Below, piece by piece: positions 24,763-44,921 of a stretch of DNA of 64,000 bases. Under the pieces are notes generated by a model. It was not told the origin of the DNA and did no database searches. It was given only the letters and a program-made list of their open reading frames with translations. Each line of letters starts with the position of its first letter. The first letter of the stretch is position 1. A program made the translations under genes and the position numbers. The stretch is from Nocardia vinacea (GTDB lineage Bacteria; Actinomycetota; Actinomycetes; Mycobacteriales; Mycobacteriaceae): the NCBI RefSeq assembly GCF_035920345.1, contig NZ_CP109149.1, positions 2,728,001 through 2,792,000 of the forward strand. The letters run 5' to 3'.

Positions 24763-27700
24763 TCAGACGTAGATGTAGGACACCCCGTTGCTGGTTCCAC
24801 CCGCGGTGGTGGCAGTGACCTGCACCGTCCCGGCCGCACCCGCAGGGGCGACGGCCGTGATCTGGATGGCGGAGTCCACGGTGAACGAGGTTGCCGGTGT
24901 GGCACCGAAGTCGACCGCCGTGGCTCCCGTCAGATCTGTTCCGGTAAGGACCACCGTTGTTCCACCGGCTGCCGGACCCGTATTCGGGACGACCGTAGTG
25001 AGCGTCGGTACCGTGATGTAGGTGTAGCCGACACCGTTGCTGGTTCCGCCCGCGGTGGTGGCGGTGACTTGCACCGTCCCCGTGCCAGCGGGCGCGACCG
25101 CCGTGATCTGCGTAGCAGAGTCCACGGTGAACGAGATCGCCGGTGTAGCACCGAAGTCGACCGCGGTAGCTGCGGTCAGATTCGTCCCGGTAAGGACCAC
25201 CGTTGTTCCACCGGCCACCGACCCCACGTTCGGAACCACTGCGGTCAGGGTGGGGACAGCAACATAGGTGTAGGAGACACCGTTACTGGTTCCACCCGCA
25301 GTGGTGGCGGTCACCTGCACCGTCCCAGCCGACCCCGCTGGGGTGAGGGCCGTGATCTGGGTGTCGGAGTTGGCGGTGAACAAGGTCGCCGGTATCGCAC
25401 CGAAGGTGACCCCGGTGGTTCCGGTCAAACCTGTTCCCGTGATCACAACCACTGTCCCACCGCTTACCGGCCCTGAACTGGGAGTGATGCCGCTCAGGGT
25501 GGGGACCGCGACATAGGTGTAGCCGACACCGTTACTGGTTCCACCGCCGGTGGTAGCGGTGACCTGCACCGTCCCGGTTCCAGCAGGGGTAACGGCGGTG
25601 ATCTGGGTGGCAGAATCCACCGTGAACGAGGTTGCCGGTGTGGCACCGAAGTTGACCGCGGTGGTTCCGGTCAAACCTGTTCCCGTGATCACAACCACCG
25701 TCCCACCGCTTACCGGCCCTGAACTGGGAGTGATGGCGCTCAGGGTGGGGACCGCGACATAGGTGTAAGAGACACCGTTACTGGTCCCACCCGCAGTGGT
25801 GACGGTGACCTGCACCGTTCCGGCCGCACCCGCGGGGACGAGGGCCGTGATCTGGGTGTCGGAGTTGACAGCGAACAAGATCGCCGGAATCGCGCCGAAA
25901 GTGACCCCGGTGGCTCCGGTCAAACCTGTTCCCGTGATCACAACCACCGTCCCACCGGTTGCCGGCCCTGAACTGGGAGTGATGCCGCTCAGGGTGGGGA
26001 CAGCGACATAGGTGTAGCCGACACCGTTACTGGTTCCACCCGCGGTAGTGACGGTGACCTGCACCGTCCCCGTACCGGCAGGCGCGACCGCCGTGATCTG
26101 CGTGGCAGAGTCCACCGTAAACGAAATCGCCGGTGTGGCACCGAAAGTCACCGCTGTCGCCCCGGTCAGGTTCGTCCCGGTGAGGACGACCGTTGTTCCA
26201 CCGGCCACCGATCCCACGTTCGGAACGACCGTGGTCAGGGTGGGGACCGCAACATAGGTGTAGCCGACACCGTTACTGGTCCCGCCCACAGTGGTGACGG
26301 TGACCTGCACCGTCCCCGTACCGGCGGGCGCGACCGCCGTGATCTGGGTGGCAGAGTCCACAGTGAACGAGATCGCCGGGGTGGCACCGAAGTCGACCGC
26401 GGTAGCTGCGGTCAGATTCGTCCCGGTCAAAACAACCGTTGTTCCGCCGGCCACCGGACCCACGCTCGGAACCACCGTGGTCAGGATGGGGACAGCAACA
26501 TAGGTGTAAGAGACACCGTTACTGGTCCCACCGGCGGTGGTAGCGGTGACCTGCACCGTCCCAGCCGCACCCGCAGGGGCGACGGCCGTGATCTGGGTGG
26601 CAGAGTCCACAGTGAACGAAGTCGCCGGTGTGGCACCGAAACTCACCGCCGTGGCCGCGGTCAAATTCGTCCCGGTCAGAACCACCGTTGTTCCGCCAGC
26701 CACCGGACCCGCATTCGGAACGACCGTGGTCAAAGTAGGGACAGCAACATAGGTGTAGCCGACACCGTTACTGGTCCCACCGGCGGTAGTGACGGTGACC
26801 TGCACGGTTCCTGTGCCGGCGGGGGCGACCGCCGTGATCTGGGTGGCAGAGTCCACCGTGAACGAGATCGCCGGGGTGGCACCGAAGTCGACCGCGGTAG
26901 CTGCGGTCAGGCTCGTCCCGGTCAAAACAACCGTTGTTCCACCGGCCACCGATCCCACGTTCGGAACGACCGTGGTCAGGGTGGGGACAGCAACATAGGT
27001 GTAGCCGACACCGTTACTGGTTCCACCCGCAGTGGTGACGGTGACCTGCACGGTTCCTGTGCCGGCAGGCGCGACCGCCGTGATCTGGGTGGCAGAGTCC
27101 ACCGTGAACGAAATCGCCGGGGTGGCACCGAAGTCGACCGCGGTAGCTGCGGTCAGATTCGTCCCGGTCAAAACAACCGTTGTTCCACCGGCCACCGGAC
27201 CCACATTCGGAACGACCGTGGTCAAAGTGGGGACCGCAACATAGGTGTAGCCGACACCGTTACTGGTCCCACCCGCAGTGGTGACGGTGACCTGCACCGT
27301 CCCCGTACCGGCAGGCGCGACCGCCGTGATCTGGGTGGCAGAGTCCACCGTAAACGAGATCGCCGGGGTGGCACCGAAGTCGACCGCGGTAGCTGCGGTC
27401 AGATTCGTCCCGGTCAAAACAACCGTTGTTCCACCGGCCACCGGACCCACGCTCGGAACGACCGTGGTCAAAGTGGGGACAGCAACATAGGTGTAGCCGA
27501 CACCGTTACTGGTTCCACCGGCGGTAGTGACGGTGACTTGCACGGTTCCTGTGCCGGCGGGGGCGACCGCCGTGATCTGGGTGGCAGAGTCGACCGTGAA
27601 CGAGATCGCCGGGGTGGCACCGAAGTCGACCGCCGTGGCTCCTGTCAGGTTTGTTCCGGTCAGGATGACTGTTGTTCCGCCAGCCACCGGACCCGCATTC

Positions 27701-30700
27701 GGAACGACCGTGGTCAAAGTGGGGACCGCAACATAGGTGTAGCCGACACCGTTACTGGTCCCACCGGCGGTAGTGACGGTGACCTGCACGGTTCCTGTGC
27801 CGGCGGGGGCGACCGCCGTGATCTGGGTGGCAGAGTCCACCGTGAACGAGATCGCCGGGGTGGCACCGAAGTCGACCGCGGTAGCTGCGGTCAGGCTCGT
27901 CCCGGTCAAAACAACCGTTGTTCCGCCAGCCACCGGACCCACATTCGGAACGACCGTGGTCAAAGTGGGGACCGCAACATAGGTGTAGCCGACACCGTTA
28001 CTGGTTCCACCCGCAGTGGTGACGGTGACCTGCACGGTTCCTGTGCCGGCGGGCGCGACCGCCGTGATCTGGGTGGCAGAGTCCACCGTGAACGAGATCG
28101 CCGGGGTGGCACCGAAGTCGACCGCGGTAGCTGCGGTCAGATTCGTCCCGGTCAAAACAACCGTTGTTCCACCGGCCACCGGACCCGCATTCGGAACGAC
28201 CGTGGTCAAAGTGGGGACCGCAACATAGGTGTAGCCGACACCGTTACTGGTCCCACCCGCAGTGGTGACGGTGACCTGCACCGTCCCCGTACCGGCGGGC
28301 GCGACCGCCGTGATCTGGGTGGCAGAGTCCACAGTGAACGAAGTCGCCGGGGTGGCACCGAAGTCGACCGCGGTAGCTGCGGTCAGATTCGTCCCGGTCA
28401 GAACAACCGTTGTTCCACCGGCCACCGGACCCACGCTCGGAACGACCGTGGTCAAAGTGGGGACAGCAACATAGGTGTAGCCGACACCGTTACTGGTTCC
28501 ACCGGCGGTAGTGACGGTGACTTGCACGGTTCCTGTGCCGGCGGGGGCGACCGCCGTGATCTGGGTGGCAGAGTCGACCGTGAACGAGATCGCCGGGGTG
28601 GCACCGAAGTCGACCGCCGTGGCTCCTGTCAGGTTTGTTCCGGTCAGGATGACTGTTGTTCCGCCAGCCACCGGACCCGCATTCGGAACGACCGTGGTCA
28701 AAGTGGGGACCGCAACATAGGTGTAGCCGACACCGTTACTGGTCCCACCGGCGGTAGTGACGGTGACCTGCACCGTCCCAGCCGCACCCGCAGGGACGAC
28801 GGCCGTGATCTGGGTGGCAGAGTCCACCGTAAACGAGATCGCCGGTGTAACACCAAAAGTCACCGCCGTCGCTCCGGTCAGGCTCGTCCCGGTCAGGACA
28901 ACCGTCGTCCCACCGGCCACCGGACCCACGCTCGGAACCACCGTGGTCAGAGTGGGGACAGCAACATAGGTGTAAGAGACACCGTTACTGGTTCCACCCG
29001 CCGTGGTGACGGTGACCTGCACCGTCCCCGTACCAGCGGGTGCGACCGCCGTGATCTGGGTGGCAGAGTCCACGGTGAACGAAGTCGCCGGGGTGCCGCC
29101 GAAAGTCACCGCCGTGGCCGCGGTCAAATTCGTCCCGGTGAGGACGACCGTCGTCCCACCGGCCACCGGACCCACATTCGGAACGACCGTGGTCAGAGTG
29201 GGGACAGCAACATAGGTGTAAGAGACACCGTTACTGGTTCCACCGGCGGTAGTGACGGTGACCTGCACCGTCCCCGTACCCGCGGGCGCGACCGCCGTGA
29301 TCTGGGTGGCAGAGTTCACCGTGAACGAGATCGCCGGTGTGGCACCGAAGTCGACCGCCGTGGCCGCGGTCAAATTCGTCCCAGTCAGAACCACCGTCGT
29401 CCCGCCAGCCACCGGACCCACGCTCGGAACGACCGTGGTCAAAGTAGGGACAGCAACATAGGTGTAGCCGACACCGTTACTGGTCCCACCCGCGGTAGTG
29501 GCAGTGACCTGCACCGTCCCCGTACCGGCGGGCGCGACCGCCGTGATCTGGGTGGCAGAGTCCACAGTGAACGAAGTCGCCGGTGTAACACCGAAAGTCA
29601 CCGCCGTGGCCCCGGTCAAATTCGTCCCGGTCAGAACAACCGTTGTTCCACCAGCCACCGGACCCACGCTCGGAACGACCGTGGTCAAAGTGGGGACAGC
29701 AACATAGGTGTAGCCGACACCATTACTGGTTCCACCCGCGGTAGTGACGGTGACCTGCACCGTCCCAGCCGATCCCGCGGGCGCGACCGCCGTGATCTGC
29801 GTAGCAGAGTCCACCGTGAACGAAGTCGCCGGGGTGGCACCGAAGTCGACCGCCGTGGCTCCTGTCAGGTTTGTTCCGGTCAGAACCACCGTCGTCCCAC
29901 CGGCCACCGGACCCGCATTCGGAACGACCGTGGTCAAAGTAGGGACAGCAACATAGGTGTAAGAGACACCATTGCTGGTCCCACCCGCAGTGGTGACGGT
30001 GACCTGCACCGTCCCCGTACCAGCGGGCGCGACCGCCGTGATCTGGGTGGCAGAGTCCACCGTGAACGAGATCGCCGGGGTGGCACCGAAGTCGACCGCC
30101 GTGGCTCCTGTCAGGTTTGTTCCGGTCAGGATGACTGTTGTTCCACCGGCCACCGGACCCACGCTCGGAACGACCGTGGTCAGAGTGGGGACAGCAACAT
30201 AGGTGTAAGAGACACCGTTACTGGTTCCACCGGCCGTGGTAGCGGTGACCTGCACCGTCCCAGCCGCACCCGCAGGGGCGACGGCCGTGATCTGGGTGGC
30301 AGAGTCCACGGTGAACGAAGTCGCCGGGGTGCCGCCGAAAGTCACCGCCGTGGCCGCGGTCAAATTCGTCCCGGTGAGGACGACCGTTGTTCCACCGGCC
30401 ACCGGACCCGCATTCGGAACGACCGTGGTCAGGGTGGGGACCGCAACATAGGTGTAGCCGACACCGTTACTGGTTCCACCGTCGGTAGTGACGGTGACCT
30501 GCACCGTCCCAGCCGATCCCGCGGGCGCGACCGCCGTGATCTGCGTAGCAGAGTTCACCGTGAACGAGATCGCCGGTGTGGCACCGAAGTTGACCGCCGT
30601 GGCCGCGGTCAGGTTCGTCCCGGTCAGGACAACCGTTGTTCCACCGGCCACCGGACCCGCATTCGGAACGACCGTGGTCAGAGTGGGGACAGCGACATAG

Positions 30701-33651
30701 GTGTAGCCGACACCGTTACTGGTTCCACCGGCGGTAGTGACGGTGACCTGCACCGTCCCAGCCGCACCCGCAGGGACGACGGCCGTGATCTGGGTGGCAG
30801 AGTCCACCGTAAACGAGATCGCCGGTGTGGCACCGAAGTTGACCGCCGTGGCCGCGGTCAGGCTCGTCCCGGTCAGGACAACCGTCGTCCCACCGGCCAC
30901 CGGACCCACATTCGGAACGACCGTGGTCAGGATGGGGACAGCAACATAGGTGTAAGAGACACCGTTACTGGTTCCCCCCGCAGTGGTGACGGTGACCTGC
31001 ACCGTCCCAGCCGCACCCGCGGGCGCGACCGCCGTGATCTGCGTAGCAGAGTTCACCGTGAACGAGATCGCCGGTGTGGCACCGAAGTCGACCGCCGTGG
31101 CCGCGGTCAAATTCGTCCCGGTCAAAACCACCGTCGTCCCGCCGGCCACCGGACCCACGCTCGGAACGACCGTGGTCAAAGTAGGGACAGCAACATAGGT
31201 GTAGCCGACACCGTTACTGGTCCCACCCGCGGTAGTGGCAGTGACCTGCACCGTCCCCGTACCGGCAGGCGCGACCGCCGTGATCTGCGTGGCAGAGTCC
31301 ACAGTGAACGAAGTCGCCGGTGTAACACCGAAACTCACCGCCGTGGCCCCGGTCAAATTCGTCCCGGTCAAAACAACCGTTGTTCCACCAGCCACCGGAC
31401 CCACATTCGGAACCACCGTGGTCAAAGTGGGAACTGCGACATAGGTGTAGCCGACACCATTGCTGGTCCCACCGGCGGTAGTGGCAGTGACCTGCACCGT
31501 CCCCGTACCGCCGGGCGCGACCGCCGTGATCTGGGTAGCGGAGTTCACAGTGAACGAGATCGCCGGTGTGGCACCGAAGGTGACCGCCGTCGCCCCGGTC
31601 AAATTCGTCCCGGTCAGAACAACCGTCGTCCCACCGGCCACCGGACCCACATTCGGAACCACCGTGGTCAAAGTAGGGACAGCAACATAGGTGTAAGAGA
31701 CACCATTGCTGGTCCCACCCGCAGTGGTGACGGTGACCTGCACCGTCCCCGTACCAGCGGGTGCGACGGCCGTGATCTGGGTGGCGGAGTTCACGGTGAA
31801 CGAAGTCGCCGGGGTAACACCAAAAGTCACCGCCGTGGCCCCGGTCAAATTCGTCCCGGTCAAAACAACCGTTGTTCCACCAGCCACCGGACCCACATTC
31901 GGAACCACCGTGGTCAAAGTAGGGACAGCAACATAGGTGTAGCCGACACCGTTACTGGTTCCACCAGCGGTAGTGACGGTGACTTGCACGGTTCCTGTGC
32001 CGGCGGGTGCGACTGCGGTGATCTGGGTGGCGGAGTTCACGGTGAACGAGATCGCCGGGGTAACACCAAAAGTCACCGCCGTGGCCGCGGTCAGGTTCGT
32101 CCCGGTCAGGACAACCGTTGTTCCACCGGCCACCGGACCCGCATTCGGAACGACCGTGGTCAGGGTGGGGACAGCAACATAGGTGTAAGAGACACCGTTA
32201 CTGGTCCCACCGGCCGTGGTGACGGTGACCTGCACGGTCCCGGCTGCACCGGCAGGCGCGACCGCCGTGATCTGGGTGGCGGAGTTCACCGTGAACGAAG
32301 TCGCCGGTGTGGCACCGAATTTGACCGCCGTGGCCGCGGTCAGGTTCGTCCCGGTCAGGACAACCGTTGTTCCACCGGCCACCGGACCCGCATTCGGAAC
32401 GACCGTGGTCAAAGTGGGGACCGCAACGTAGGTGTAGCCGACACCGTTACTGGTTCCACCGGCGGTAGTGACGGTGACCTGCACCGTCCCCGTACCGGCT
32501 GGCGCGACCGCCGTGATCTGCGTAGCAGAGTTCACCGTGAACGAAGTCGCCGGTGTGGCACCGAATTTGACCGCCGTGGCCGCGGTCAGGTTCGTCCCGG
32601 TCAGGACAACCGTCGTCCCACCGGCCACCGGACCCGCATTCGGAACGACCGTGGTCAAAGTAGGGACCGCAACATAGGTGTAAGAGACACCGTTACTGGT
32701 CCCACCCGCAGTAGTGACGGTGACCTGCACCGTCCCCGTACCGGCTGGCGCGACCGCCGTGATCTGCGTAGCAGAGTTCACCGTGAACGAAGTCGCCGGT
32801 GTAGCACCGAATTTGACCGCGGAGGCAGTGGATAGCCCCGTCCCGGTGAGGACGACCGTCGTCCCGCCGACCACTGGTCCTGAACTGGGAGTGATGCTGG
32901 TCAGGGCGGGAACCCCGGCATAGGTGTAGGAGACCCCGTTGCTGGGACCACCCGAGCCAGTGACGGTGACCTGCACCGTGCCCGTCCCTGGAGGTGCGAT
33001 CGCAGTGAGCTGCGTACTGGAATTCACGGTGAAGGTGGTAGCGGTGGTGCCGAACCGCACGGTGAGGGGGCCGGTGAACTCGGTGCCGGTCACCGTGACA
33101 CTGTTACCTCCCGAGGCGGGCCCCGCAGTCGGAGAGATGGACGTGATGGTGGGTACGACGACATAGATATAGGTCGCCCCGTTGCTGGTTCCGCCCGGGG
33201 CGGTGACGGTGATCTGCACAATGCCGGTTCCGGCAGGAGCGACAGCCGTGATCTGCGTGTTCGAGACGACAGTGAAGGAGGTTGCCGCCGTACCACCGAA
33301 GCTGACCGCTGTGACACCAGACAGATTGGTGCCGGTGAGGGTGACCGTGTTCCCGCCAGTGGTGGGCCCCTGAGTTGGACTCACGCTGGTCAGGGAAGGA
33401 ACCGGGAGATAAGTGTAGGAAACACCGTTACTGATACCACCACCCGACGTGGTGACGGTGACCTGCACCGTACCTGTTCCGGGAGGGGCGATGGCCGTGA
33501 TCTGCGTGGGAGAGTTCACCGTGAAAGTGGTTGCCACCGTGCCGAACTTCACGGTGGTGACGATGGGGACGAACCCGGTGCCGGTAATCGTGACACTGGT
33601 ATTCCCCGAGGCAGGCCCCGCCGTGGGAGAGATGGACGTGATGGTTGGCAT
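24763..33651 (-). CDS. Giant IPT/TIG repeat protein, 2962 aa
   Basis: The protein is built almost wholly from about 36 copies of an 82-83-residue IPT/TIG (immunoglobulin-like) unit. Each copy runs from VPTLTTVVPNxGPVAGGTTV through a T/DFGxTPAxSFTV block to TAGGTSNGVxYTYV. The first three and a few late copies are the most divergent; the central ones are near-identical. There is no signal peptide, membrane segment, LPxTG motif or catalytic domain, and it begins directly with the first repeat (MPTITSISPTAGPASG). IPT/TIG folds usually occur in extracellular or surface proteins, so the lack of an export signal is odd; export by another route or a cytoplasmic role are both open. The ATG at 33651 is preceded by GAAGGAAG at a normal distance. 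Identification as IPT/TIG is strong; the function is unknown. Confidence 0.85.
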   Translation of the reverse strand: MPTITSISPTAGPASGNTSVTITGTGFVPIVTTVKFGTVATTFTVNSPTQITAIAPPGTGTVQVTVTTSGGGISNGVSYTYLPVPSLTSVSPTQGPTTGGNTVTLTGTNLSGVTAVSFGGTAATSFTVVSNTQITAVAPAGTGIVQITVTAPGGTSNGATYIYVVVPTITSISPTAGPASGGNSVTVTGTEFTGPLTVRFGTTATTFTVNSSTQLTAIAPPGTGTVQVTVTGSGGPSNGVSYTYAGVPALTSITPSSGPVVGGTTVVLTGTGLSTASAVKFGATPATSFTVNSATQITAVAPAGTGTVQVTVTTAGGTSNGVSYTYVAVPTLTTVVPNAGPVAGGTTVVLTGTNLTAATAVKFGATPATSFTVNSATQITAVAPAGTGTVQVTVTTAGGTSNGVGYTYVAVPTLTTVVPNAGPVAGGTTVVLTGTNLTAATAVKFGATPATSFTVNSATQITAVAPAGAAGTVQVTVTTAGGTSNGVSYTYVAVPTLTTVVPNAGPVAGGTTVVLTGTNLTAATAVTFGVTPAISFTVNSATQITAVAPAGTGTVQVTVTTAGGTSNGVGYTYVAVPTLTTVVPNVGPVAGGTTVVLTGTNLTGATAVTFGVTPATSFTVNSATQITAVAPAGTGTVQVTVTTAGGTSNGVSYTYVAVPTLTTVVPNVGPVAGGTTVVLTGTNLTGATAVTFGATPAISFTVNSATQITAVAPGGTGTVQVTATTAGGTSNGVGYTYVAVPTLTTVVPNVGPVAGGTTVVLTGTNLTGATAVSFGVTPATSFTVDSATQITAVAPAGTGTVQVTATTAGGTSNGVGYTYVAVPTLTTVVPSVGPVAGGTTVVLTGTNLTAATAVDFGATPAISFTVNSATQITAVAPAGAAGTVQVTVTTAGGTSNGVSYTYVAVPILTTVVPNVGPVAGGTTVVLTGTSLTAATAVNFGATPAISFTVDSATQITAVVPAGAAGTVQVTVTTAGGTSNGVGYTYVAVPTLTTVVPNAGPVAGGTTVVLTGTNLTAATAVNFGATPAISFTVNSATQITAVAPAGSAGTVQVTVTTDGGTSNGVGYTYVAVPTLTTVVPNAGPVAGGTTVVLTGTNLTAATAVTFGGTPATSFTVDSATQITAVAPAGAAGTVQVTATTAGGTSNGVSYTYVAVPTLTTVVPSVGPVAGGTTVILTGTNLTGATAVDFGATPAISFTVDSATQITAVAPAGTGTVQVTVTTAGGTSNGVSYTYVAVPTLTTVVPNAGPVAGGTTVVLTGTNLTGATAVDFGATPATSFTVDSATQITAVAPAGSAGTVQVTVTTAGGTSNGVGYTYVAVPTLTTVVPSVGPVAGGTTVVLTGTNLTGATAVTFGVTPATSFTVDSATQITAVAPAGTGTVQVTATTAGGTSNGVGYTYVAVPTLTTVVPSVGPVAGGTTVVLTGTNLTAATAVDFGATPAISFTVNSATQITAVAPAGTGTVQVTVTTAGGTSNGVSYTYVAVPTLTTVVPNVGPVAGGTTVVLTGTNLTAATAVTFGGTPATSFTVDSATQITAVAPAGTGTVQVTVTTAGGTSNGVSYTYVAVPTLTTVVPSVGPVAGGTTVVLTGTSLTGATAVTFGVTPAISFTVDSATQITAVVPAGAAGTVQVTVTTAGGTSNGVGYTYVAVPTLTTVVPNAGPVAGGTTVILTGTNLTGATAVDFGATPAISFTVDSATQITAVAPAGTGTVQVTVTTAGGTSNGVGYTYVAVPTLTTVVPSVGPVAGGTTVVLTGTNLTAATAVDFGATPATSFTVDSATQITAVAPAGTGTVQVTVTTAGGTSNGVGYTYVAVPTLTTVVPNAGPVAGGTTVVLTGTNLTAATAVDFGATPAISFTVDSATQITAVAPAGTGTVQVTVTTAGGTSNGVGYTYVAVPTLTTVVPNVGPVAGGTTVVLTGTSLTAATAVDFGATPAISFTVDSATQITAVAPAGTGTVQVTVTTAGGTSNGVGYTYVAVPTLTTVVPNAGPVAGGTTVILTGTNLTGATAVDFGATPAISFTVDSATQITAVAPAGTGTVQVTVTTAGGTSNGVGYTYVAVPTLTTVVPSVGPVAGGTTVVLTGTNLTAATAVDFGATPAISFTVDSATQITAVAPAGTGTVQVTVTTAGGTSNGVGYTYVAVPTLTTVVPNVGPVAGGTTVVLTGTNLTAATAVDFGATPAISFTVDSATQITAVAPAGTGTVQVTVTTAGGTSNGVGYTYVAVPTLTTVVPNVGSVAGGTTVVLTGTSLTAATAVDFGATPAISFTVDSATQITAVAPAGTGTVQVTVTTAGGTSNGVGYTYVAVPTLTTVVPNAGPVAGGTTVVLTGTNLTAATAVSFGATPATSFTVDSATQITAVAPAGAAGTVQVTATTAGGTSNGVSYTYVAVPILTTVVPSVGPVAGGTTVVLTGTNLTAATAVDFGATPAISFTVDSATQITAVAPAGTGTVQVTVTTVGGTSNGVGYTYVAVPTLTTVVPNVGSVAGGTTVVLTGTNLTGATAVTFGATPAISFTVDSATQITAVAPAGTGTVQVTVTTAGGTSNGVGYTYVAVPTLSGITPSSGPATGGTVVVITGTGLTGATGVTFGAIPAILFAVNSDTQITALVPAGAAGTVQVTVTTAGGTSNGVSYTYVAVPTLSAITPSSGPVSGGTVVVITGTGLTGTTAVNFGATPATSFTVDSATQITAVTPAGTGTVQVTATTGGGTSNGVGYTYVAVPTLSGITPSSGPVSGGTVVVITGTGLTGTTGVTFGAIPATLFTANSDTQITALTPAGSAGTVQVTATTAGGTSNGVSYTYVAVPTLTAVVPNVGSVAGGTTVVLTGTNLTAATAVDFGATPAISFTVDSATQITAVAPAGTGTVQVTATTAGGTSNGVGYTYITVPTLTTVVPNTGPAAGGTTVVLTGTDLTGATAVDFGATPATSFTVDSAIQITAVAPAGAAGTVQVTATTAGGTSNGVSYIYV
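24790..33400. repeat. 246/249-bp coding tandem repeat array
   Basis: A DNA tandem repeat of 246 or 249 bp underlies the IPT/TIG protein. The 3-bp length difference comes from PAGTGTV versus PAGAAGTV (or PAGSAGTV) variants. Landmarks such as the reverse complement of TACACCTATGT recur once per unit across the array. Central copies differ by a few bases each, as expected from repeated unequal crossing-over or gene conversion. The periodicity also keeps antisense frames open, creating long spurious ORFs on the plus strand. Confidence 0.9.
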
Positions 33652-34317: not shown

Positions 34318-35289
34318 TCAGCGGGGTTTGTCGGTGGGTTCGGTTGCCCTGGCGTGGGCATTGCGATAGCTGTGGGTGCCAGTCTCGATGATGTTGCCGC
34401 CGAGGGTAAGTCGGTCGATGATGGCGGCGCGCAGCCCAGCGTCGGTGAAGGTTTTGGACCAGTCTGCGAAGCTGCGGTTGGAAACGATCGCGACCGACTT
34501 CCCCTCCTCGCGTTCGGTCAATACCTGGAACAGCAATTCGGCGCCGCGTCTGTCCAGTTCTGTGTAGCCGAGTTCGTCGATGCATAGCAGGTCGACGCCG
34601 CTGTAGCGAGCGATGGTGTTGGTGAGCCGTTTGCGATCGGCGGCTTCGATCAGTTTGTTGACCAGCCTGGCAGCCAGGGTGTATCTGACGCGATATCCGG
34701 CTTTCGCCGCCTCGGTGCCCAAGGCGATGAGCAGATGGGATTTTCCGGTGCCGGAGTCACCGATCAAGCACAACGGCAGCCCTTCCTTGACCCAGTCGCA
34801 TCTAGCGAGAGTGCGGATCATGGCAGGGTCGACACTGGGGTTGGCACCGAAATCGAAGTCACGCAACGTTTTAGAGCGAGGGAACCCCGCGGCCTTGATG
34901 AGCCTTTCGGAGCGGCGACGGGCTGTTATCTGTTCCGCCTGTAGCTGTGGTTTGCGTTTGCGGACATAGGCACTGACTCGCTGATACGACACGTCCCTCA
35001 TGCCGTGCTCCTCGACCAAACGGTGATAGATCCGGGTCGCCGTGTGATGTTGTCTACGAGGCACATCCAGATCGGCTCGCAGCACATCGTCGATGAACGG
35101 CTTGTAGGGATCCAGCTTCTGTGGTCGCGGCGGATACCCCTTACGCGGCTCGGGCCACACCGAATCCGTCGCGCTGGCCACCGTACGCCACCCGACCCTG
35201 TACTTGCGCTCGATGGCACGCATGGATAGGCCGGCACGAAGATCCTGTCGGATAGCCGCGTACAGTTCGACTTTTGACATGTCAGACAT
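34318..35289 (-). CDS. IstA N-terminus / IstB ATPase fusion protein
   Basis: The first 110 or so residues are the N-terminal part of an IS21 IstA transposase: a helix-turn-helix (VELYAAIRQDLRAGLSMRAIERKYRV) followed by a region ending YVRKRKPQ. The rest is an IstB helper ATPase lacking its first few dozen residues: ERLIKAAGFPRSKTL, Walker A GDSGTGKSHL, Walker B VDLLCIDELGYTEL, SNRSFADW sensor region and a C-terminal HxYR segment. The IstA DDE catalytic core is missing. The join is in frame, so an internal deletion of about 1 kb has turned two genes into one intact ORF. It should bind DNA and perhaps ATP but cannot catalyse transposition. ATG codons at 35289 and 35280 are both possible starts. 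Confidence 0.8.
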   Translation of the reverse strand: MSDMSKVELYAAIRQDLRAGLSMRAIERKYRVGWRTVASATDSVWPEPRKGYPPRPQKLDPYKPFIDDVLRADLDVPRRQHHTATRIYHRLVEEHGMRDVSYQRVSAYVRKRKPQLQAEQITARRRSERLIKAAGFPRSKTLRDFDFGANPSVDPAMIRTLARCDWVKEGLPLCLIGDSGTGKSHLLIALGTEAAKAGYRVRYTLAARLVNKLIEAADRKRLTNTIARYSGVDLLCIDELGYTELDRRGAELLFQVLTEREEGKSVAIVSNRSFADWSKTFTDAGLRAAIIDRLTLGGNIIETGTHSYRNAHARATEPTDKPR

Positions 35290-35346
35290 GGGCAGGCTCC
35301 CCTCGCCCCGCAACCGATAACTACACTATAACCGCTGGTGCTGCCT

Positions 35347-35397
35347 AAATCCGTGACTCCGCAACGCGCCCGTCAAGATTCGTGAGCAACCGCCGTC
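35347..35397. repeat. IS21-type left-end repeats, inverted relative to the right end
   Basis: On the minus strand, 35397-35375 reads GACGGCGGTTGCTCACGAAT and three more bases, matching the right-end unit at about 18 of 23 positions. A weaker copy (GACGGGCGCG followed by GTCACGGAT) lies just inside. The opposite orientation to the repeats at 34049 supports paired IS ends. Confidence 0.65.
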
Positions 35398-35400
35398 ACG

Positions 35401-35770
35401 GTTGATGAACATGGCACCGGCTCGAAGTGGCCTCGATACCGTCCTGAGTAGTGGCAGATCGTGTTTCGACTGGGCAGGTCGATGCGTTGCTGCTGCGGCA
35501 GCGACGCGGCAAGTCACCACGTGTCGTGCGCAGCAGTGGGAACGCCCGCGAGCACGCGCGGGCGTGGATGCTCGGCTCGACCCATGCGCCGCCAGGCAGG
35601 CAGCCTCGCGTTTGCTCGGTGGATCCGCGTCGAGGTATAACGTCGAACCCTCTTCCTGTTAGTGGGTCTTCCCGTCTGACGACTGGGGCCGCAATGGTGG
35701 CCGTAGGACGCGGACCTCACCTCGGCCCGTCACCGTTGACTATCCGGGAATTACGTGAACGAAAACCGGC
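35401..35770. other. Spacer between the two insertion sequences
   Basis: No gene with family features was seen in this stretch. Short frames on both strands have irregular composition and look fortuitous. Confidence 0.4.
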
Positions 35771-36205
35771 TCAACCTGAGGATTTCCGTGAACGCCGACA
35801 CTCCCGGCCTGCGATCGCCGTGTCGGACAACCGCCGCTCACAGCGACTGTGCACCCGAGCCGACAGCTTGCGAGACCGGAAACGCGGCGCGCCCAGCCTG
35901 GAGCCCTTGCGCTTGCCCGATAGGGAATCGAACCAGTTCCGGTACCCTGCCCGCGCATCCCGGCACGCCTGCACGAGCACCACCGATGCCACCTCTGCCA
36001 GCCACGCCCGCTCCGGGCTGCGCTTCGCCAACGTGACCACCCGGCGCTGAATCTCGGTGTCGGACACCTTCACACCGGCGGAATGTGCTTCCTGCCGCAC
36101 CCGCAGGCAATCGTTGTACACCACCCGCGCGCACCCGAACGCCCGCGCCAACGCAATCTGCTGGCCCGGCGTCGGATAGACGCGGAAGTTGTACCGTAGC
36201 TGCAC
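35771..36205 (-). pseudogene. tnpB: Truncated TnpB (IS605 OrfB)
   Basis: The ORF opens with the usual TnpB start: MQLRYNFRVYPTPGQ, then ARAFGCARVVYNDCL and a RFRSRK motif near residue 110. Intact TnpB proteins are about 370-450 residues with a RuvC-like nuclease and a zinc ribbon; here homology stops near residue 112 and the frame ends at 144. The RuvC catalytic residues and zinc finger are absent, so it is inactive as an RNA-guided nuclease. Confidence 0.7.
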
Positions 36206-36227
36206 AATTCGATCGTATCAATGGTCT

Positions 36228-36674
36228 ATGGTTTCGAATTCGGACTACAGACGCGGGCGCAGTGCCGTTTCCGCGATGCATGTTCATTTGGTCTTCGTCA
36301 CCAAATACCGACGTGGCGTGCTCACCGAAGAACTGCTCACCACCTGCGAGCACGTGATGCGCGACGTGTGCACCGACTTCGAGTGCGAGCTGGTCGAGTT
36401 CAACGGCGACCACGACCATGTGCACCTGCTGATCGAATATCCACCCAAGGTCGCGGTGTCCAAGCTGGTGAACAGCCTCGAGGGGGTGTCCGCTCGTCGC
36501 CTGCGTGACGAATACCGTGGTTGGGTGAACCGGCACAGCATGAACGGGCACTTCTGGTCCCCGAGCTATTTCGCTGCCTCCTGCGGCGGCGCCCCACTGT
36601 CGATCATCCAGCAATACATCGAGCAGCAGCAACGGCCGCCCCGTACCCCAGGAAGACCGAAGTTGATGCGCTGA
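36228..36674 (+). CDS. tnpA: IS200/IS605 family Y1 transposase TnpA
   Basis: A protein of 148 residues, the usual length for TnpA. It has the family start (DYRRGRSAVSAMHVHLVFVTK), the HUH metal-binding motif in HDHVHLLIEYPP, and the catalytic tyrosine in QQYIEQQQ near the end, preceded by FWSPSYFAASCGG. It cleaves and rejoins single-stranded DNA. I chose the ATG at 36228 because residues after it match the family; an upstream start at 36189 would overlap the tnpB start. It appears intact and could still mobilise this element. Confidence 0.85.
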   Translation: MVSNSDYRRGRSAVSAMHVHLVFVTKYRRGVLTEELLTTCEHVMRDVCTDFECELVEFNGDHDHVHLLIEYPPKVAVSKLVNSLEGVSARRLRDEYRGWVNRHSMNGHFWSPSYFAASCGGAPLSIIQQYIEQQQRPPRTPGRPKLMR

Positions 36675-39231: not shown

Positions 39232-40211
39232 GCGATCACGCTCCATCCATACGTTCGGCACCGGGCACTCGTGCAGTTCCGACCGGCTGGAATCGGCCTC
39301 ACCCGCCAGTGTGGCACAAGCCCACTGGGACACGCCGAGAACCTGCTGGAGCAGCTTTGGCATCTGAACGGCTCGGAGCGCCAGGGACAGCCGACCCGCT
39401 CTGTTGGTGATCACAGATGAGACCCGTTGGCGCAGAGTGGTGTTCGATGTTCCAGGCATCGACTGAACAACGATGTTGCAGTCGTGCACATACATTCGAT
39501 CTCGAGCGCGAAATCTCGCACCCTGCACTATTCACTCGATTTCGGATCTTGGCATGTCCGAGGTTCCGGTTAGGACATCGATTGAGCGGATGGCAACTGG
39601 CCTCAGGTCGGACCCGCCACGACGGTGCAGATGCTGCTGTTCTCGGCGTCCCTCGAGGCAATCCAGCACGTCTTGGTGGACTACTCGAGCAGCGGTCAGG
39701 GAGAACCCCTGCTGCTGGGGAATCCGCAGCAGATCCTGGGCGGCCAACTCTCGCTGCTGTTGCAGCAGGTGAGCGTAGACCGCGAGCCCCGTTCAGCGCA
39801 CTCGAGAGTGATTTTCTGTGCTAACTACTTGACCAGCTGCACATTAAAGCGCAGAATGGCGATCGGGGACGGGAGTAGGTCACTAGGTGGCACAGGGGGA
39901 CGATTCGCAAAATGGCCCGAAAAATCCGCGATGGGCGGCGGCTGCACGTTATGACGACGACCAAATGCTTGTTCGGACTCGGCATGGGGATTGGTTAGTA
40001 GAATTGACAAGGCTGTCACGATATTCCCTGTCGAGCAAGTACGTCCGCCATAGGCCGACCCTATCTCTGTTGTCAATTCGGCATCCAGCCAACAAACGTG
40101 CGTCGTCGCGGTCTATATCTGCCTCGAAAATATAGATAGTTACTTTTCAGTTAAGTCTTCGAGTCGAACAAACCCGACTCAGGAAGAGACCCCGCCTCCG
40201 AGGGGAGTGCG
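39232..40211. other. Intergenic region before the lasso operon
   Basis: About 1 kb without a recognisable gene. Several overlapping short frames exist on both strands near 39470-39950, none with family features. From about 40080 the sequence becomes AT-rich (AAAATATAGATAG near 40128), which is where the lasso operon promoter most likely lies, although no convincing -35/-10 pair was fixed. Confidence 0.45.
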
Positions 40212-40226
40212 CGAAAGGAAAGGAAA
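40212..40226 (+). promoter_or_regulatory. Ribosome binding site of the lasso precursor gene
   Basis: The purine run GAAAGGAAAGGAAAG lies 7 bases before the ATG at 40233. It is a strong Shine-Dalgarno tract and supports the start of the short precursor gene. Confidence 0.65.
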
Positions 40227-40232
40227 GTAAAA

Positions 40233-40373
40233 ATGGAAAAGGTCGAAAATAACTCGAACAAAAAGGTGTACGAGAAGCCGGTCGTCGCCAAGTGCGGGGA
40301 GTTTCGAACGCTTACCGGAGGGGTTTTCACGACACAATCCGACTTGCTGGTCGGACGCCGAGGAATGATTTGA
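40233..40373 (+). CDS. Lasso peptide precursor, lassomycin-like core
   Basis: A 46-codon gene just upstream of the lasso cyclase. The leader contains YEKPVV (residues 13-18), the YxxPx(L/V) motif read by lasso RRE proteins, and ends with Thr at the penultimate position (T28-G29). The predicted core is GVFTTQSDLLVGRRGMI (residues 30-46): Gly1 would be joined to the side chain of Asp8, giving an 8-residue macrolactam ring and a 9-residue tail. The tail shares LVGRR in the same register with lassomycin (GLRRLFADQLVGRRNI, known from Lentzea), while the ring differs. A core starting one Gly earlier with a 9-residue ring is possible but would put Leu instead of Thr at leader position -2. Precursor identity is supported by the full A-C-B1-B2-D context; structure and activity are inferred. 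Confidence 0.88.
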   Translation: MEKVENNSNKKVYEKPVVAKCGEFRTLTGGVFTTQSDLLVGRRGMI

Positions 40374-40414
40374 TTCGACACCGTAAACGAACTCGAATCG
40401 TAGGAGCCTAACAG

Positions 40415-42253
40415 ATGACTGGCGATGCTCGAACAGGATTCGTCGTACTCCCTGATAGCGAGGCAGGAGTGGGCATCGCCAGGCGTCTTCTTCCATGGGG
40501 AAAAATATTGGCCGAGCACCCTTCGGAACGGCCCATGGTAGTTGGAGATTGCCGAGACCGGCCTGTCATTTACAAAGTCGGACACGCGGCGCGAGTAGTG
40601 ATACTCGGCCATGCCCTGATCGACGAAGACGCGGTTCACGAGTATGCGATATCGATTGATTCGGCAGCCCGCTGGCGAGCCCTTCTCGACACGATCGATG
40701 GATCCTTTCACTCTATCGTCAATGTGAATGGCGACATCTATGTAAATGGTTCCACATACGGGTCCCGCAGCCTGTACCGCGCTCGAGTGGACGGCATCGA
40801 CATTGCTGCCGACACGGTGCATGCCCTTACACACCTGGTCGGCGGGCGGCTCGACGTCGGCGCCCTCGCCGCGCATCTGCTCGAGCCGATACCCCATCAC
40901 CTTGCACAACGTCCATTGCTTGCCGGAATCGACCCGGTGCCCCCGGGCGTTGAGATGGTCCTAACGCCGAGGGGAACGTCCCGGTCGATCAGGGGCAAGA
41001 CAGAAACAACAGTGGTGCGGGACCTCGACGAAGGAGCACATGAGGTCCGGAATCGGCTGGTGGGTGCGGTGTCGGCTCGCACAGCGGCGGGTGGCACGGT
41101 TACTTCGGAGCTTTCAGGTGGCTACGACTCGACATCGATAAGCTTCATAGCTGCGAGGGGGCCGGCAGAGGTCAAGCTGCTGACGGCGCGCGGACGCGAT
41201 TCCGCCAATGAGGACCTCGAGTGGGCTTTGCGCGCCGCACGGCATCTGCCAGAAGTGGAACACACGATTCTCCCGGATTCCGATTTACCTCTTACCTATT
41301 CCGGGCTGGAGGATGGGCCGACCTGGTTGAACGAGCCGTCACCGCTGATCGTCGGCAGAAGTCGCGTCGGTGCGCTCGCAAAACTGGCGTCGACTTTCGG
41401 TTCGAGTGTGCATCTGACCGGTCATGGGGGCGACCACGTCTTCACCGGTTTGCCTACGCGCTATCGCGATCTCCTGTGGCAACGTCCTTTCACCGCCTGG
41501 CGCGGGTTGCGGGGCTTTGCGGCCCTTGGCGGATGGCGATTGCGAGACCTGTTGTACGACGCTGTCGAGCCCACCGGTTTCCACTCGTGGTGGAAGAAGA
41601 ACACCAGGCCGGTCGTGGGCGTGCCAGAAAGGCGTAAACCGATGTTGGGCTGGGCAATTACTCCATCCATGCCCATATGGGCGACGGAAACCGCTGAAAA
41701 GGCAATCAGCGAAGGCATCCTCTGGATGGCATCCACTAGGGAACCACTGGCACCCGAGCGTGGATATCATGTTGAACTGGAGACCATAATCGAGGGCGCC
41801 AGAACGGTGGCCGTATTGAACAGGATGTCGTTGGCAGCGGGCGGACCACCTTTGGCGGCACCCTACTTCGACGACAGAGTGATTTCCGCTTCCTTGTCGG
41901 TAGCCGTTCAGCACCGAGTCAGCGCGTGGACATACAAGCCCCTGCTCAGAGCATCGGTACGCGGAATCGTTCCTGATGTGGTTTTGCAACGGCAGACGAA
42001 GGACGACGGCTCGCATGATGTCGAGCTCGGATTGCGAAAGCATCGCGACGAACTCGTAGCACTATGGGAAGGGTCGCGGCTCGGCGATATCGGCCTCATA
42101 GACTCGCAGAAACTGAAGCAGTTGTGCGCGAATCCCAGCTCGTTCGAGTTGGAAGAGGGAACGATGTATACAACGATTGCCTGCGAGCTCTGGCTGCGAG
42201 ACCTGGAGCGAAGTTTCGTCGAACCGCAGAATGGTAGTACTGGGAAAAGATAA
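40415..42253 (+). CDS. Lasso peptide macrolactam synthetase (C protein, asparagine synthetase-like)
   Basis: A 612-residue homologue of asparagine synthetase B. The first 170 residues are a degenerate glutaminase-like domain without an N-terminal catalytic Cys. The synthetase domain has the ATP pyrophosphatase loop SELSGGYDSTS (231-241) and later GHGGDHVFTG. In lasso biosynthesis this protein adenylates the side-chain carboxylate at core position 7-9 and closes the ring onto the core N-terminus, here expected to join Asp8 to Gly1. It begins 41 bp after the precursor gene and ends 14 bp before the RRE gene, so it is in the same operon. Base composition is visibly lower in G/C than neighbouring operons. 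Confidence 0.92.
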   Translation: MTGDARTGFVVLPDSEAGVGIARRLLPWGKILAEHPSERPMVVGDCRDRPVIYKVGHAARVVILGHALIDEDAVHEYAISIDSAARWRALLDTIDGSFHSIVNVNGDIYVNGSTYGSRSLYRARVDGIDIAADTVHALTHLVGGRLDVGALAAHLLEPIPHHLAQRPLLAGIDPVPPGVEMVLTPRGTSRSIRGKTETTVVRDLDEGAHEVRNRLVGAVSARTAAGGTVTSELSGGYDSTSISFIAARGPAEVKLLTARGRDSANEDLEWALRAARHLPEVEHTILPDSDLPLTYSGLEDGPTWLNEPSPLIVGRSRVGALAKLASTFGSSVHLTGHGGDHVFTGLPTRYRDLLWQRPFTAWRGLRGFAALGGWRLRDLLYDAVEPTGFHSWWKKNTRPVVGVPERRKPMLGWAITPSMPIWATETAEKAISEGILWMASTREPLAPERGYHVELETIIEGARTVAVLNRMSLAAGGPPLAAPYFDDRVISASLSVAVQHRVSAWTYKPLLRASVRGIVPDVVLQRQTKDDGSHDVELGLRKHRDELVALWEGSRLGDIGLIDSQKLKQLCANPSSFELEEGTMYTTIACELWLRDLERSFVEPQNGSTGKR

Positions 42254-42267
42254 GGGACAGAAGGAAC

Positions 42268-42525
42268 ATGGATTCCGCTACACCGAGACCCGGCTTGTCT
42301 TTTGTAAGAACAGAGTATGGGGGTGTGATTCTCGATATGCAGCGAGGCGACTATTGGCGGCTGAATCCGGTAGGAGCGGAAGTGTTCGCATCGCTTGTCG
42401 TCGACAGCGGCGCCGACCTCGTTGCGGCAGTCCTCGATCAGTTCGATGTCGATGCAGCTACAGCACAGCGTGACGTGAAAGAACTCCTGGACCACCTTCG
42501 AGATGTTGGATTGGTGCTCGCGTGA
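42268..42525 (+). CDS. Lasso RRE protein (B1, PqqD-like)
   Basis: An 85-residue PqqD-family RiPP recognition element (LSFVRTEYGGVILDMQRGDYW is its strand region; then helices with LLDHLRDVGLV at the end). It binds the YxxPx(L/V) motif of the leader and presents the precursor to the B2 peptidase and the cyclase. Its stop codon overlaps the GTG start of the next gene (GTGA), indicating translational coupling. Confidence 0.88.
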   Translation: MDSATPRPGLSFVRTEYGGVILDMQRGDYWRLNPVGAEVFASLVVDSGADLVAAVLDQFDVDAATAQRDVKELLDHLRDVGLVLA

Positions 42526-42971
42526 GTCATCACATGGCCCTCGGGACCGGACTCGAGGCGGACGGGCGCAGGGGTGAACGGTTTTCCGCACGGTGGGCTG
42601 TTCGAGCCGCGAGGGTCGTTGTCATGTTGCGGCCGCGGCGGATCGAATGGTCCTTGAAGCAGTTACGTAGAGGAAGTCGTCCGGCCTCATTCGAAGATGC
42701 CGAAAGATGGAGGCGGCGGGTAGTGGAGGTGAGTCCTGATGCCGCCGGACGATATGGGTGTCTGATGAGGTCCGTGGCGACCGCCCTCTTGAGCCGAAGA
42801 TACGGTGCGTGGACGACCTGGTGTGTCGGCGTTCGCACGGAACTGCCGTTCGCGGCACACGCATGGGTCGAGGCAGACGGCAGGCTTGTCGGTGAGGCAG
42901 GCGATATGACTACATTCAGCCGACTGATCGTGGTCGGCCCGCACGAGAACGTGGGTGAAGATGTCAGCTGA
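42522..42971 (+). CDS. Lasso leader peptidase (B2, transglutaminase-like)
   Basis: A 149-residue transglutaminase-fold cysteine protease that removes the leader. The catalytic Cys is in YGCLMRSVA, the His in PFAAHAWVE, and an acidic residue follows in GEAGD. Together with the separate RRE this is the split-B arrangement usual in actinobacterial lasso clusters. The GTG at 42522 overlaps the B1 stop; an internal ATG at 42534 is an alternative. Its 3' end overlaps the transporter gene. Confidence 0.88.
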   Translation: MSHHMALGTGLEADGRRGERFSARWAVRAARVVVMLRPRRIEWSLKQLRRGSRPASFEDAERWRRRVVEVSPDAAGRYGCLMRSVATALLSRRYGAWTTWCVGVRTELPFAAHAWVEADGRLVGEAGDMTTFSRLIVVGPHENVGEDVS

Positions 42972-44751
42972 CAACGGTGACACTCGGCAGGGCGATTCGT
43001 GGCTGCGCAGAGTCGGGGCCTTACTCAGGTTGATCGCACCCCAACGGAATTCCTTGTTGGGAGCAACGGCACTTCTTCTCGTAGGTACCGGACTTTCGCT
43101 GGTGCAGCCGCTGCTGGCCGGACGGGTCATCCGGGATGCGGTTTCGGGTGAGACAATCGTATGGTCCCTTGCGGCGTTGGTCGGAGCCTATCTCTTGTAT
43201 GCCGTAACCGATACCTGCGGACTCTATATTCTCGAGCGATCCAGTGAGTCCGTGCTTTTGTCTGTGCGCAATCGCTTGGCCGGGCATCTGCTGAGGTTGA
43301 GAATTCCCACACTCGAGTCGCTCAGGGTTGGAGACCTGATTTCCCGCGTGACGCTCGATTCAACGGTGATTCGGAACGCCGTCGGGACCAGTCTTATTCA
43401 AATATTGACCGGGGCGATCACACTCATTGGGACCGTCGCGGTGATGATCTATCTCGATTGGCTGTTGTTCTCGATCGTTTTCGTTACCGTTGGCGCTGCC
43501 GCGGGTGCGATGTTGCTGGTCATGATGAGAATCGAGGTAGCCTCGACTCGATTGCAAGAGAGTGTCGGTGCGCTTTCCGCGGACATCGAACGCGCGCTCA
43601 CCGGAGTGCGCACGGTCAAAGTGAACAATGCCGAGGACCGCGAGCACGAGCACTTGGCCGAGTTGGCCGGTGCGGCATTCTCCGCCGGCGTGCGCGCCGC
43701 CAGATTGAAGGCACTGGGAAATCCGGCAATGCACCTGGCGGTGACCGGTTCGTTTGTTGTATCTCTGCTGGTCGGCGGCGTCCGGGTAGCGAATCACCAG
43801 ATGGAGTTGAGCAGTCTTGTGACGATGATGCTCCTCGCGATGAATTTGCTGATTCCGGTCGGCGATCTTTTCAACGGCTCCGTCGGGCTTCAGAAAGCCC
43901 TGGGTGCGCTCAGCCGGATAGAGTCGACACTCGAATTGCCTTCCGAGGACGTCGACGACATCCAGGAAAGCGGCACTGAACCAGGTCGCAGATCGCCGAT
44001 CGCAACGATCGACAAGTCTGCGGAAAATGGGCAACTCGCGCTCGAGTTCCGGGATGTGCATTTCTCATACGATGAGAGAACAATTCTCAAGGGTGTGAAT
44101 TTTTCGGTTCCGTCACACGGGCATGTAGCGTTGGTCGGGCATTCGGGTGCTGGAAAGTCCACGGTGTTCTCGTTGGTGAGCAGGTTCTACAATCCGGACG
44201 ACGGCGACATTCTGTTGGGAGGTCGGTCGTACGCTGGTCGGCCGCGCCGGGCATGGCGCTCGGAAATCAGCTTGCTGGAACAGAACGCGCCACTGTTGTT
44301 CGGCAGCCTTCGAGACAATTTGACATACCGGGAACCCGGTCTCGCTGAGGATGACCTGCAGCGCGCAATAAAGCTCGCCGGTCTGGCAGATCTTGTCGCA
44401 CGACTGCCTCGTGGCCTCGACACCCCAGTGGGTGAGCACGGCGTTCTGCTCTCTGGCGGCGAGCGACAACGCGTGGCGTTGGCACGGGCATTGATTCGAC
44501 GTCCAGTGCTGATGATGCTGGATGAGCCCACGGCGATGCTGGACGCCGAGACCGAGAAGGCGTTGAACGTGACCATCCAGGCAGTGCGAAAAGAGTGCGC
44601 GCTGTTGGTCATTGCCCATCGCCTGTCCACGATTCGCGAAGCTGATACCGTCATGTTCCTCAAGGACGGGCAGATCGTCGACAGCGGCTCACACGACGAG
44701 TTGGTTGCCCGGAACGTGGACTACCAACAGCTTGTCGGCGCGAAGGTGTGA
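42961..44751 (+). CDS. Lasso peptide ABC exporter (D protein)
   Basis: A 596-residue fused ABC exporter with an N-terminal six-helix transmembrane domain (about 20-320) and a C-terminal nucleotide-binding domain: Walker A GHSGAGKST, signature LSGGERQRVALARAL, Walker B LMMLDEPTAML and H-loop IAHRLS. It should export the mature lasso peptide and give self-protection. The ATG at 42961 lies within the end of the B2 gene (11-base overlap); a GTG two codons earlier is possible. It is the last gene of the lasso operon; no methyltransferase, acetyltransferase or isopeptidase gene follows. Confidence 0.9.
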   Translation: MSADNGDTRQGDSWLRRVGALLRLIAPQRNSLLGATALLLVGTGLSLVQPLLAGRVIRDAVSGETIVWSLAALVGAYLLYAVTDTCGLYILERSSESVLLSVRNRLAGHLLRLRIPTLESLRVGDLISRVTLDSTVIRNAVGTSLIQILTGAITLIGTVAVMIYLDWLLFSIVFVTVGAAAGAMLLVMMRIEVASTRLQESVGALSADIERALTGVRTVKVNNAEDREHEHLAELAGAAFSAGVRAARLKALGNPAMHLAVTGSFVVSLLVGGVRVANHQMELSSLVTMMLLAMNLLIPVGDLFNGSVGLQKALGALSRIESTLELPSEDVDDIQESGTEPGRRSPIATIDKSAENGQLALEFRDVHFSYDERTILKGVNFSVPSHGHVALVGHSGAGKSTVFSLVSRFYNPDDGDILLGGRSYAGRPRRAWRSEISLLEQNAPLLFGSLRDNLTYREPGLAEDDLQRAIKLAGLADLVARLPRGLDTPVGEHGVLLSGGERQRVALARALIRRPVLMMLDEPTAMLDAETEKALNVTIQAVRKECALLVIAHRLSTIREADTVMFLKDGQIVDSGSHDELVARNVDYQQLVGAKV

Positions 44752-44921
44752 ATCGCCCGACGCGTCCGGAGCGTTGGACATCCCCGGTTTCTCGGATGCC
44801 GCGTTGCCGGGCGCCGTCGTGGCGTCGCACACACTGCCCCACGTCAAGAAGCGTCAGCGACACCTGACTGGTGTCGAAGTGCCGCTTACCTACCTCCAGC
44901 CGCGTTACCGCCGGTACCGCC

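What the first reader, a model, noticed from the sequence alone, without database searches (positions are those of the whole stretch)
40233..40373. Undescribed lassomycin-like lasso peptide
The 46-residue precursor, too short for standard ORF calls, encodes the core GVFTTQSDLLVGRRGMI. Gly1 and Asp8 would close an 8-residue ring, Thr is at leader position -2, and YxxPxV lies in the leader. From position 10 on, LVGRR matches the tail of lassomycin (GLRRLFADQLVGRRNI), which kills mycobacteria by acting on ClpC1. The ring differs completely: the basic residues R3 and R4 of lassomycin are replaced by F3 and T4, so target binding could be changed or moved to another AAA+ unfoldase. The tail Arg pair is kept.
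Basis: partly seen in the sequence, partly recalled or inferred. Interest (0 to 1): 0.85.

Follow-up and report, generated by a model that had tools for sequence, protein, structure and literature searches.

The report
Nocardia lasso peptide, lassomycin-type tail
A Nocardia bacterium carries a compact gene set for a small knotted peptide whose tail matches two known knotted antibiotics that kill mycobacteria but whose ring is different, which offers a ready test of which part of such peptides hits the target.

Summary
Window 40233-40373 encodes a 46-aa lasso precursor heading a five-gene operon (A, C, B1/RRE, B2, D). The core GVFTTQSDLLVGRRGMI is the cleavage that fits the leader register (Y-17, P-14, G-8, F-6, T-2). 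Of 150 Nocardia genomes, 6 hold the operon whole, 1 apparently split over contigs, 2 as remnants in which exporter D is still an open frame.

The lassomycin link is partly supported. A second lasso with ClpC1-linked resistance, kitamycobactin (GFGRIKADELVGRLIP), shares with lassomycin and this peptide G1, D8, L10, V11, G12, R13. Among 81 distinct lasso-like cores surveyed, only the 3 of this family carry VG[R/K/H]. Against: Arg4 of both known peptides is Thr4 here; no methyltransferase in the operon; the nearest sampled cyclase (SRO15-2005 type, placement unsure) also goes with an Arg-Arg tail; caulonodin II, from my list of 52 lassos, matches the tail as well as kitamycobactin does. The producer's own ClpC1 N-domain keeps Q17, R21 and P79, so protection would have to come from export.

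Verdict: a class II lasso operon (near certain, from genes alone), an undescribed member of a known kind, with a testable ClpC1 hypothesis (about 0.4).

The parts
40233..40373 (+). lasso precursor A, 46 aa: leader 1-29, core 30-46 GVFTTQSDLLVGRRGMI, predicted Gly1-Asp8 lactam
   Evidence: NF033521 18.4 bits and PF19397 20.6 bits, both just under cut-off; orthologues; leader register
40415..42253 (+). C, asparagine-synthetase-like lasso cyclase, 612 aa, SGGYDS at residue 234
   Evidence: PF00733 122.8 bits, cut-off 21; NF033561 219.1 bits, under its cut-off of 300; motif
42268..42525 (+). B1, PqqD-like RiPP recognition element, 85 aa
   Evidence: NF033530 72.9 bits, cut-off 70; PF05402 59.0 bits, cut-off 23.4
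42522..42971 (+). B2, transglutaminase-like leader peptidase, 149 aa, overlapping B1
   Evidence: NF033537 99.7 bits, cut-off 33; PF13471 87.9 bits
42961..44751 (+). D, ABC exporter, overlapping B2; scanned from 42964
   Evidence: PF00664 121.0 and PF00005 102.5 bits; Walker A and LSGGE motifs
40153..44769 (+). extent of the conserved operon block among Nocardia, about 80 bases upstream of A to the end of D
   Evidence: blastn against relatives, 77-80% identity for the whole copies

Best explanation
A five-gene operon makes and exports a class II lasso peptide. B1 binds the YEKPVV leader, B2 cuts after TG, C closes Gly1 onto Asp8 around the tail LLVGRRGMI, and D pumps the product out. Genes and order are shown; maturation is inferred from the known family. 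The most likely function is a narrow-spectrum antibiotic against related actinobacteria that binds the N-domain of ClpC1 through the face formed by D8-x-L-V-G-R, as lassomycin and kitamycobactin are thought to act; the producer, whose ClpC1 N-domain is of the sensitive type, is protected by export through D. Target and immunity are inferred. I put the lasso operon at 0.97 and ClpC1 as target at about 0.4; the confidence below is for the whole.
For: Complete operon with four curated-family hits over cut-off or typical domains. Conserved operon and core in Nocardia with purifying selection. Core register supported by T-2, F-6, G-8, P-14, Y-17 (rules from PMC10368454 and PMC4960549, passages). 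Shared G1, D8, L10, V11, G12, R13 with both lassomycin and kitamycobactin; 7 and 6 register-fixed identities, best outside the family 4 and 4 of 78 cores. Producer ClpC1 N-domain identical to a solved ClpC1 N-domain in 146 of 148 residues, with Q17, R21, P79, the positions of lassomycin resistance (PMC5322326, passage). D frame intact in two genomes that lost A, most of C and B1.
Against: Arg4 of both ClpC1 lassos is Thr4; net charge by my count is +1 (0 in the E6 form) against +4 for lassomycin methyl ester. No methyltransferase among 19 window ORFs scanned. Cyclase nearest to an SRO15-2005-type lasso, also with an Arg pair, with citrulassin grouping not rejected (p-AU 0.328). Caulonodin II also reaches 4 tail identities, so VGR occurs without ClpC1 evidence. 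Lassomycin's own cluster could not be found, so common descent is untested. D in remnants evolves no slower than the broken C fragment (0.132 vs 0.164), so retention is suggestive only. No expression or activity data.
Confidence: 0.42

Rival explanations
1. A genuine lasso antibiotic with a target other than ClpC1; LVGRR is a structural element (loop and steric plug residues) that fits this cyclase lineage rather than a target-binding face.
For: Nearest sampled cyclase clade makes GYFYGSYKEYWVRRII, and SRO15-2005 ends SRRII. Arg4 and the methyltransferase are absent. Caulonodin II has VGR.
Against: VGR in this exact register occurs in none of 78 other surveyed cores yet in both lassos with ClpC1-linked resistance; L10, V11 and G12 are not shared with SRO15-2005.
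Confidence: 0.4
2. A lasso peptide that is not an antibiotic but a signal or metal/siderophore-like factor for Nocardia itself.
For: No activity is known; most lasso peptides have no known function (general knowledge). Only 7 of 150 Nocardia genomes carry it.
Against: Patchy carriage, different flanks and D kept in remnants fit a weapon and its immunity better than a signal.
Confidence: 0.12
3. Chance ORF or dead operon.
For: Leader scores just under two curated cut-offs; two kin genomes hold broken copies.
Against: Conserved sequence, purifying selection, intact machinery.
Confidence: 0.02

Closest known systems
Lassomycin (Lentzea; GLRRLFADQLVGRRNI)
   Same: G1, D8 ring, residues 10-14 LVGRR, length 16 vs 17, class II
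   Different: R3 R4 are F3 T4; A7 is S7; end RRNI with methyl ester vs RRGMI with no methyltransferase in the operon; charge +4 vs +1
Kitamycobactin (Kitasatospora; GFGRIKADELVGRLIP)
   Same: G1, D8, L10, V11, G12, R13
   Different: R4 and K6 in the ring are T4 and Q6/E6; L14 where this and lassomycin have R14
SRO15-2005 (Streptomyces; GYFVGSYKEYWSRRII)
   Same: nearest sampled cyclase lineage is of this type (L216, 38% identity, SH-aLRT 98); G1, F3, Arg pair near the end
   Different: ring acid Glu9, tail YWSRRII without LVG
Citrulassins (e.g. LLGLAGNDRLVLSKN)
   Same: D8-x-L-V, cyclase about 39% identical in L204 and L207
   Different: Leu1, no VGR, ends SKN
Lariatin A (Rhodococcus; GSQLVYREWVGHSNVIKP)
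   Same: antimycobacterial, made by a near relative genus, VG in the tail with Gly11 needed for activity
   Different: Glu8 ring, VGH one place earlier, no Arg pair, target not given in the passages I saw

Membership tests
Lasso peptide biosynthetic operon (actinobacterial, split B) | precursor plus C, B1 (RRE), B2 in one operon | tested here: met
Lasso peptide biosynthetic operon (actinobacterial, split B) | leader YxxPx[L/V] at -17 to -12 and Thr at -2 | tested here: met
   rule from PMC10368454 passages
Lasso peptide biosynthetic operon (actinobacterial, split B) | residue 1 and Asp/Glu at 7-9 for the ring | tested here: met
   Gly1, Asp8
Lasso peptide biosynthetic operon (actinobacterial, split B) | threaded product shown | not testable with these tools
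   needs mass spectrometry, NMR
Lassomycin-type ClpC1 lasso | G1, D8, L10-V11-G12-R13 | tested here: met
Lassomycin-type ClpC1 lasso | basic ring residue Arg4 (shared by lassomycin and kitamycobactin; that it defines the group is my reading of two sequences) | tested here: not met
   Thr4
Lassomycin-type ClpC1 lasso | C-terminal O-methyltransferase in the cluster (lassomycin, stsp, sake) | tested here: not met
   conserved block holds five genes only; none among 19 window ORFs scanned; a gene elsewhere in the genome was not sought
Lassomycin-type ClpC1 lasso | common descent of the biosynthetic genes with lassomycin's | tested here: inconclusive
   lassomycin cluster not found: pattern search of 390 genomes gave no lasso locus; it may not be held
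Lassomycin-type ClpC1 lasso | acts on ClpC1 | not testable with these tools
   no assay; producer ClpC1 is of the sensitive type

The most novel reading that the evidence does not exclude
D8-x-[L/F]-V-G-R is the ClpC1-binding face of lasso peptides, separable from the ring: lassomycin, kitamycobactin and this Nocardia family carry it on three different rings. The Nocardia peptide poisons the ClpC1 of mycolic-acid bacteria although the producer's own ClpC1 is of the sensitive type, and the exporter D is the immunity gene, kept alone by kin that lost the peptide.
Probability: 0.3. Interest if true: 0.75.

Novelty: new member of a known kind. Interest (0 to 1): 0.48.

Why it matters
If it acts on ClpC1 without Arg4, without a methyl ester and with little positive charge, the tail alone would be the binding face, which would simplify the design question for antimycobacterial lasso peptides and give a natural variant for structure work. 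If it does not act on ClpC1, the tail motif is shown not to be enough and attention moves to Arg4 and the ester. Either result is informative. The two remnant loci with an open D frame also offer a simple genetic test of exporter-based immunity in Nocardia.

Tried and rejected
Core starting at Gly29 (9-residue ring): rejected, leader register fails. Search of 390 genomes of an unnamed family that I take for Pseudonocardiaceae with the 17-letter lassomycin query: 0 matches, and the 20 genomes listed show no candidates in the first look, so it says nothing. Degenerate D-x-[L/F]-V-G-[R/S]-R-x-[I/M] pattern in the same 390: 21 genomes, one match each, against 3 for the reversed control; 18 of 21 places were fetched (G815, G816, G817 were not) and none had C, B1 or B2 nearby (one had an ABC transporter hit, 32%); I treat them as chance. 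The window's genome has two further pattern matches, also without lasso genes. Precursor profile in 397 genomes of the order: only the window's own is strong; 11 others at E 0.0098-0.046 were not inspected. Precursor alone in 99 relatives: G000 and G015 clear, 16 other matches at E 0.1-1 not inspected. A stem-loop between A and C in the window is not kept in relatives: dropped. Cyclases of 55 genomes of a Streptomyces-like family: 30 places, no VG[R/K/H] tail found on the strand scanned. Retention of D as proof of immunity: downgraded, since dN/dS of the broken C fragment is similar. 10 of 85 B2 matches of the class survey were not fetched.

In one search the leader/core split for G1257 is off by two codons, so I do not quote it. 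In one search I left out 11 of the 62 table rows (near-duplicates, a non-standard letter, lariocidins, some siamycin types).

Full report
What is there. The ORF at 40233-40373 encodes MEKVENNSNKKVYEKPVVAKCGEFRTLTGGVFTTQSDLLVGRRGMI. It is followed by C (40415-42253), B1 (42268-42525), B2 (42522-42971) and D (42961-44751). B1 and B2 pass their NCBIfam lasso cut-offs; C is a clear asparagine-synthetase-like protein with an SGGYDS motif (Pfam cut-off passed; its best NCBIfam lasso-cyclase model, NF033561, scores 219.1 against a cut-off of 300); D has both ABC exporter domains; the precursor itself scores just under two leader models. The window lies in a 10.36-Mb Nocardia genome (genus from named relatives).

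Cleavage and ring. PMC10368454 (passages) places YxxPxL at -17 to -12 and Thr at -2; PMC4960549 (passages) adds Tyr/Phe at -6 and Gly at -8. With the core at Gly30 all are met (Y-17, P-14, V-12, G-8, F-6, T-2); with the core at Gly29 T-2, F-6, G-8, P-14 and Y-17 fail. So the predicted product is a 17-residue lactam Gly1-Asp8 with tail LLVGRRGMI, monoisotopic mass 1830.977, [M+2H]2+ 916.496.

Relatives. A scan of genome contigs found five Nocardia loci with cyclases 77-78% identical: N. kruczakiae, N. mikamii, N. nova, N. elegans and a metagenome-assembled genome. Four hold the precursor, core GVFTTESDLLVGRRGMI. Of 150 Nocardia genomes searched for B2, 22 have one. From the fetched regions, six hold this operon whole (G000, G328, G1228, G1231, G1232, G1257), G015 apparently holds it split over two contigs (precursor end on one, C to D on the other), two hold remnants (G1255, G1266) and 13 hold other lasso loci. 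G1257 has GVFTTQSDFFVGRRGMI. The shared DNA runs from about 80 bases before A to the end of D and no further, apart from one 80-base match upstream in N. mikamii, within the few kilobases of flank held: the operon sits in different places as a self-contained unit. IS-type genes lie 4-6 kb upstream in the window.

Selection. Against the four named species the core has dN 0.03 with dS 0.62-1.05; the leader dN is 0.16-0.21; genes C, B1, B2 and D of whole copies have dN/dS 0.08-0.24. G1266 starts inside B2 and keeps a full D frame; G1255 has no A or B1, a broken C, part of B2 and a full D frame. D kept in both hints at immunity, but the dN/dS of D (0.127, 0.132) is not clearly below that of the broken C piece (0.164), and n is 2.

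Comparison with ClpC1 lassos. Lassomycin is GLRRLFADQLVGRRNI (table in PMC12427821, section 16). Kitamycobactin is GFGRIKADELVGRLIP, and a ClpC1 Q17R change raises its MIC from 0.06 to 4 ug/ml (PMC7407088, passages). The two and the Nocardia peptide share G1, D8, L10, V11, G12, R13. In 131 loci scanned (window, 100 B2 regions, 30 cyclase loci) a strict-register search gave 81 distinct cores in 82 loci, some perhaps chance ORFs. Only the three of this family hold VG[R/K/H]; they have 6-7 identities with lassomycin and 5-6 with kitamycobactin, the rest at most 4 and 4. Random tails drawn from the known pool match lassomycin this well at 3e-5, or the best of 52 at 0.0044. In the same list caulonodin II also has 4 tail identities to this peptide, as many as kitamycobactin; so the motif alone is not proof.

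What differs. Arg4, common to both, is Thr4. Lassomycin's methyl ester is ascribed to LasF in its cluster, and two lassomycin-like clusters also carry a methyltransferase (PMC9266682, passages); the Nocardia block has five genes and none. By my count the charge is +1 or 0 against +4. Kitamycobactin has Leu14, so the Arg pair is not the common trait.

Machinery. In a tree of 55 cyclases the Nocardia clade (100) joins L216, whose core is GYFYGSYKEYWVRRII, like SRO15-2005 (SH-aLRT 98); the same set comes out with 63 rows (98), but holding the Nocardia clade with the two citrulassin rows is not rejected (p-AU 0.328), and long branches were flagged. Lassomycin's cyclase was not available, so whether the shared tail is inherited or convergent is open.

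Target side. The genome's ClpC1 (C1:6510270 region) has an N-domain identical in 146 of 148 residues to solved chain 7aa4_A, with Q17, R21 and P79 in place, the positions given for lassomycin resistance (PMC5322326, passage). A ClpC1 poison would thus need to be kept out of the producer, which fits exporter D but does not prove it.

In print. Searches for GVFTTESD, GVFTTQSD and DLLVGRRGMI found 0 papers; LVGRR gave 10 papers, of which I opened one; Nocardia with lasso peptide gave 45, 30 listed, one opened; lassomycin-like gave 9. The library holds open-licence papers only, and large genome-mining tables may list this precursor, so undescribed means not found in these searches.

Verdict. An intact, selected class II lasso operon, a new member of a known kind, with a tail that makes ClpC1 a reasonable but unproven target.

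Noticed in passing
window 24763-33651 (-): 2962-aa ORF with 36 stretches matching the IPT/TIG domain (PF01833); a very large repeat protein.
   Followed up: no
window 34318-36674: IstB-like gene, an OrfB/IS605 helix-turn-helix piece and an IS200-type Y1 transposase, 4-6 kb upstream of the operon.
   Followed up: no
L149 (G1266) and L201 (G1255): Remnant operons in which the exporter D frame is still open while A, B1 and all or much of C are gone.
   Followed up: partly
L141 (G1235:C20): Two neighbouring precursors GTIHTQKDATTWGFKKG and GTIHTKKDATTFGFKKG before one cyclase.
   Followed up: no
L140, L143, L144, L146: Four Nocardia genomes share core GSSYVIIEGYPSAWGSNY; L147, L151 and L200 share a family NL[R/K]RG..EP.
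   Followed up: no
PMC7407088: The exact mass printed for kitamycobactin (2259) does not fit its printed 16-mer (lactam 1721.994); perhaps swapped with the other peptide of that sentence (1735).
   Followed up: partly
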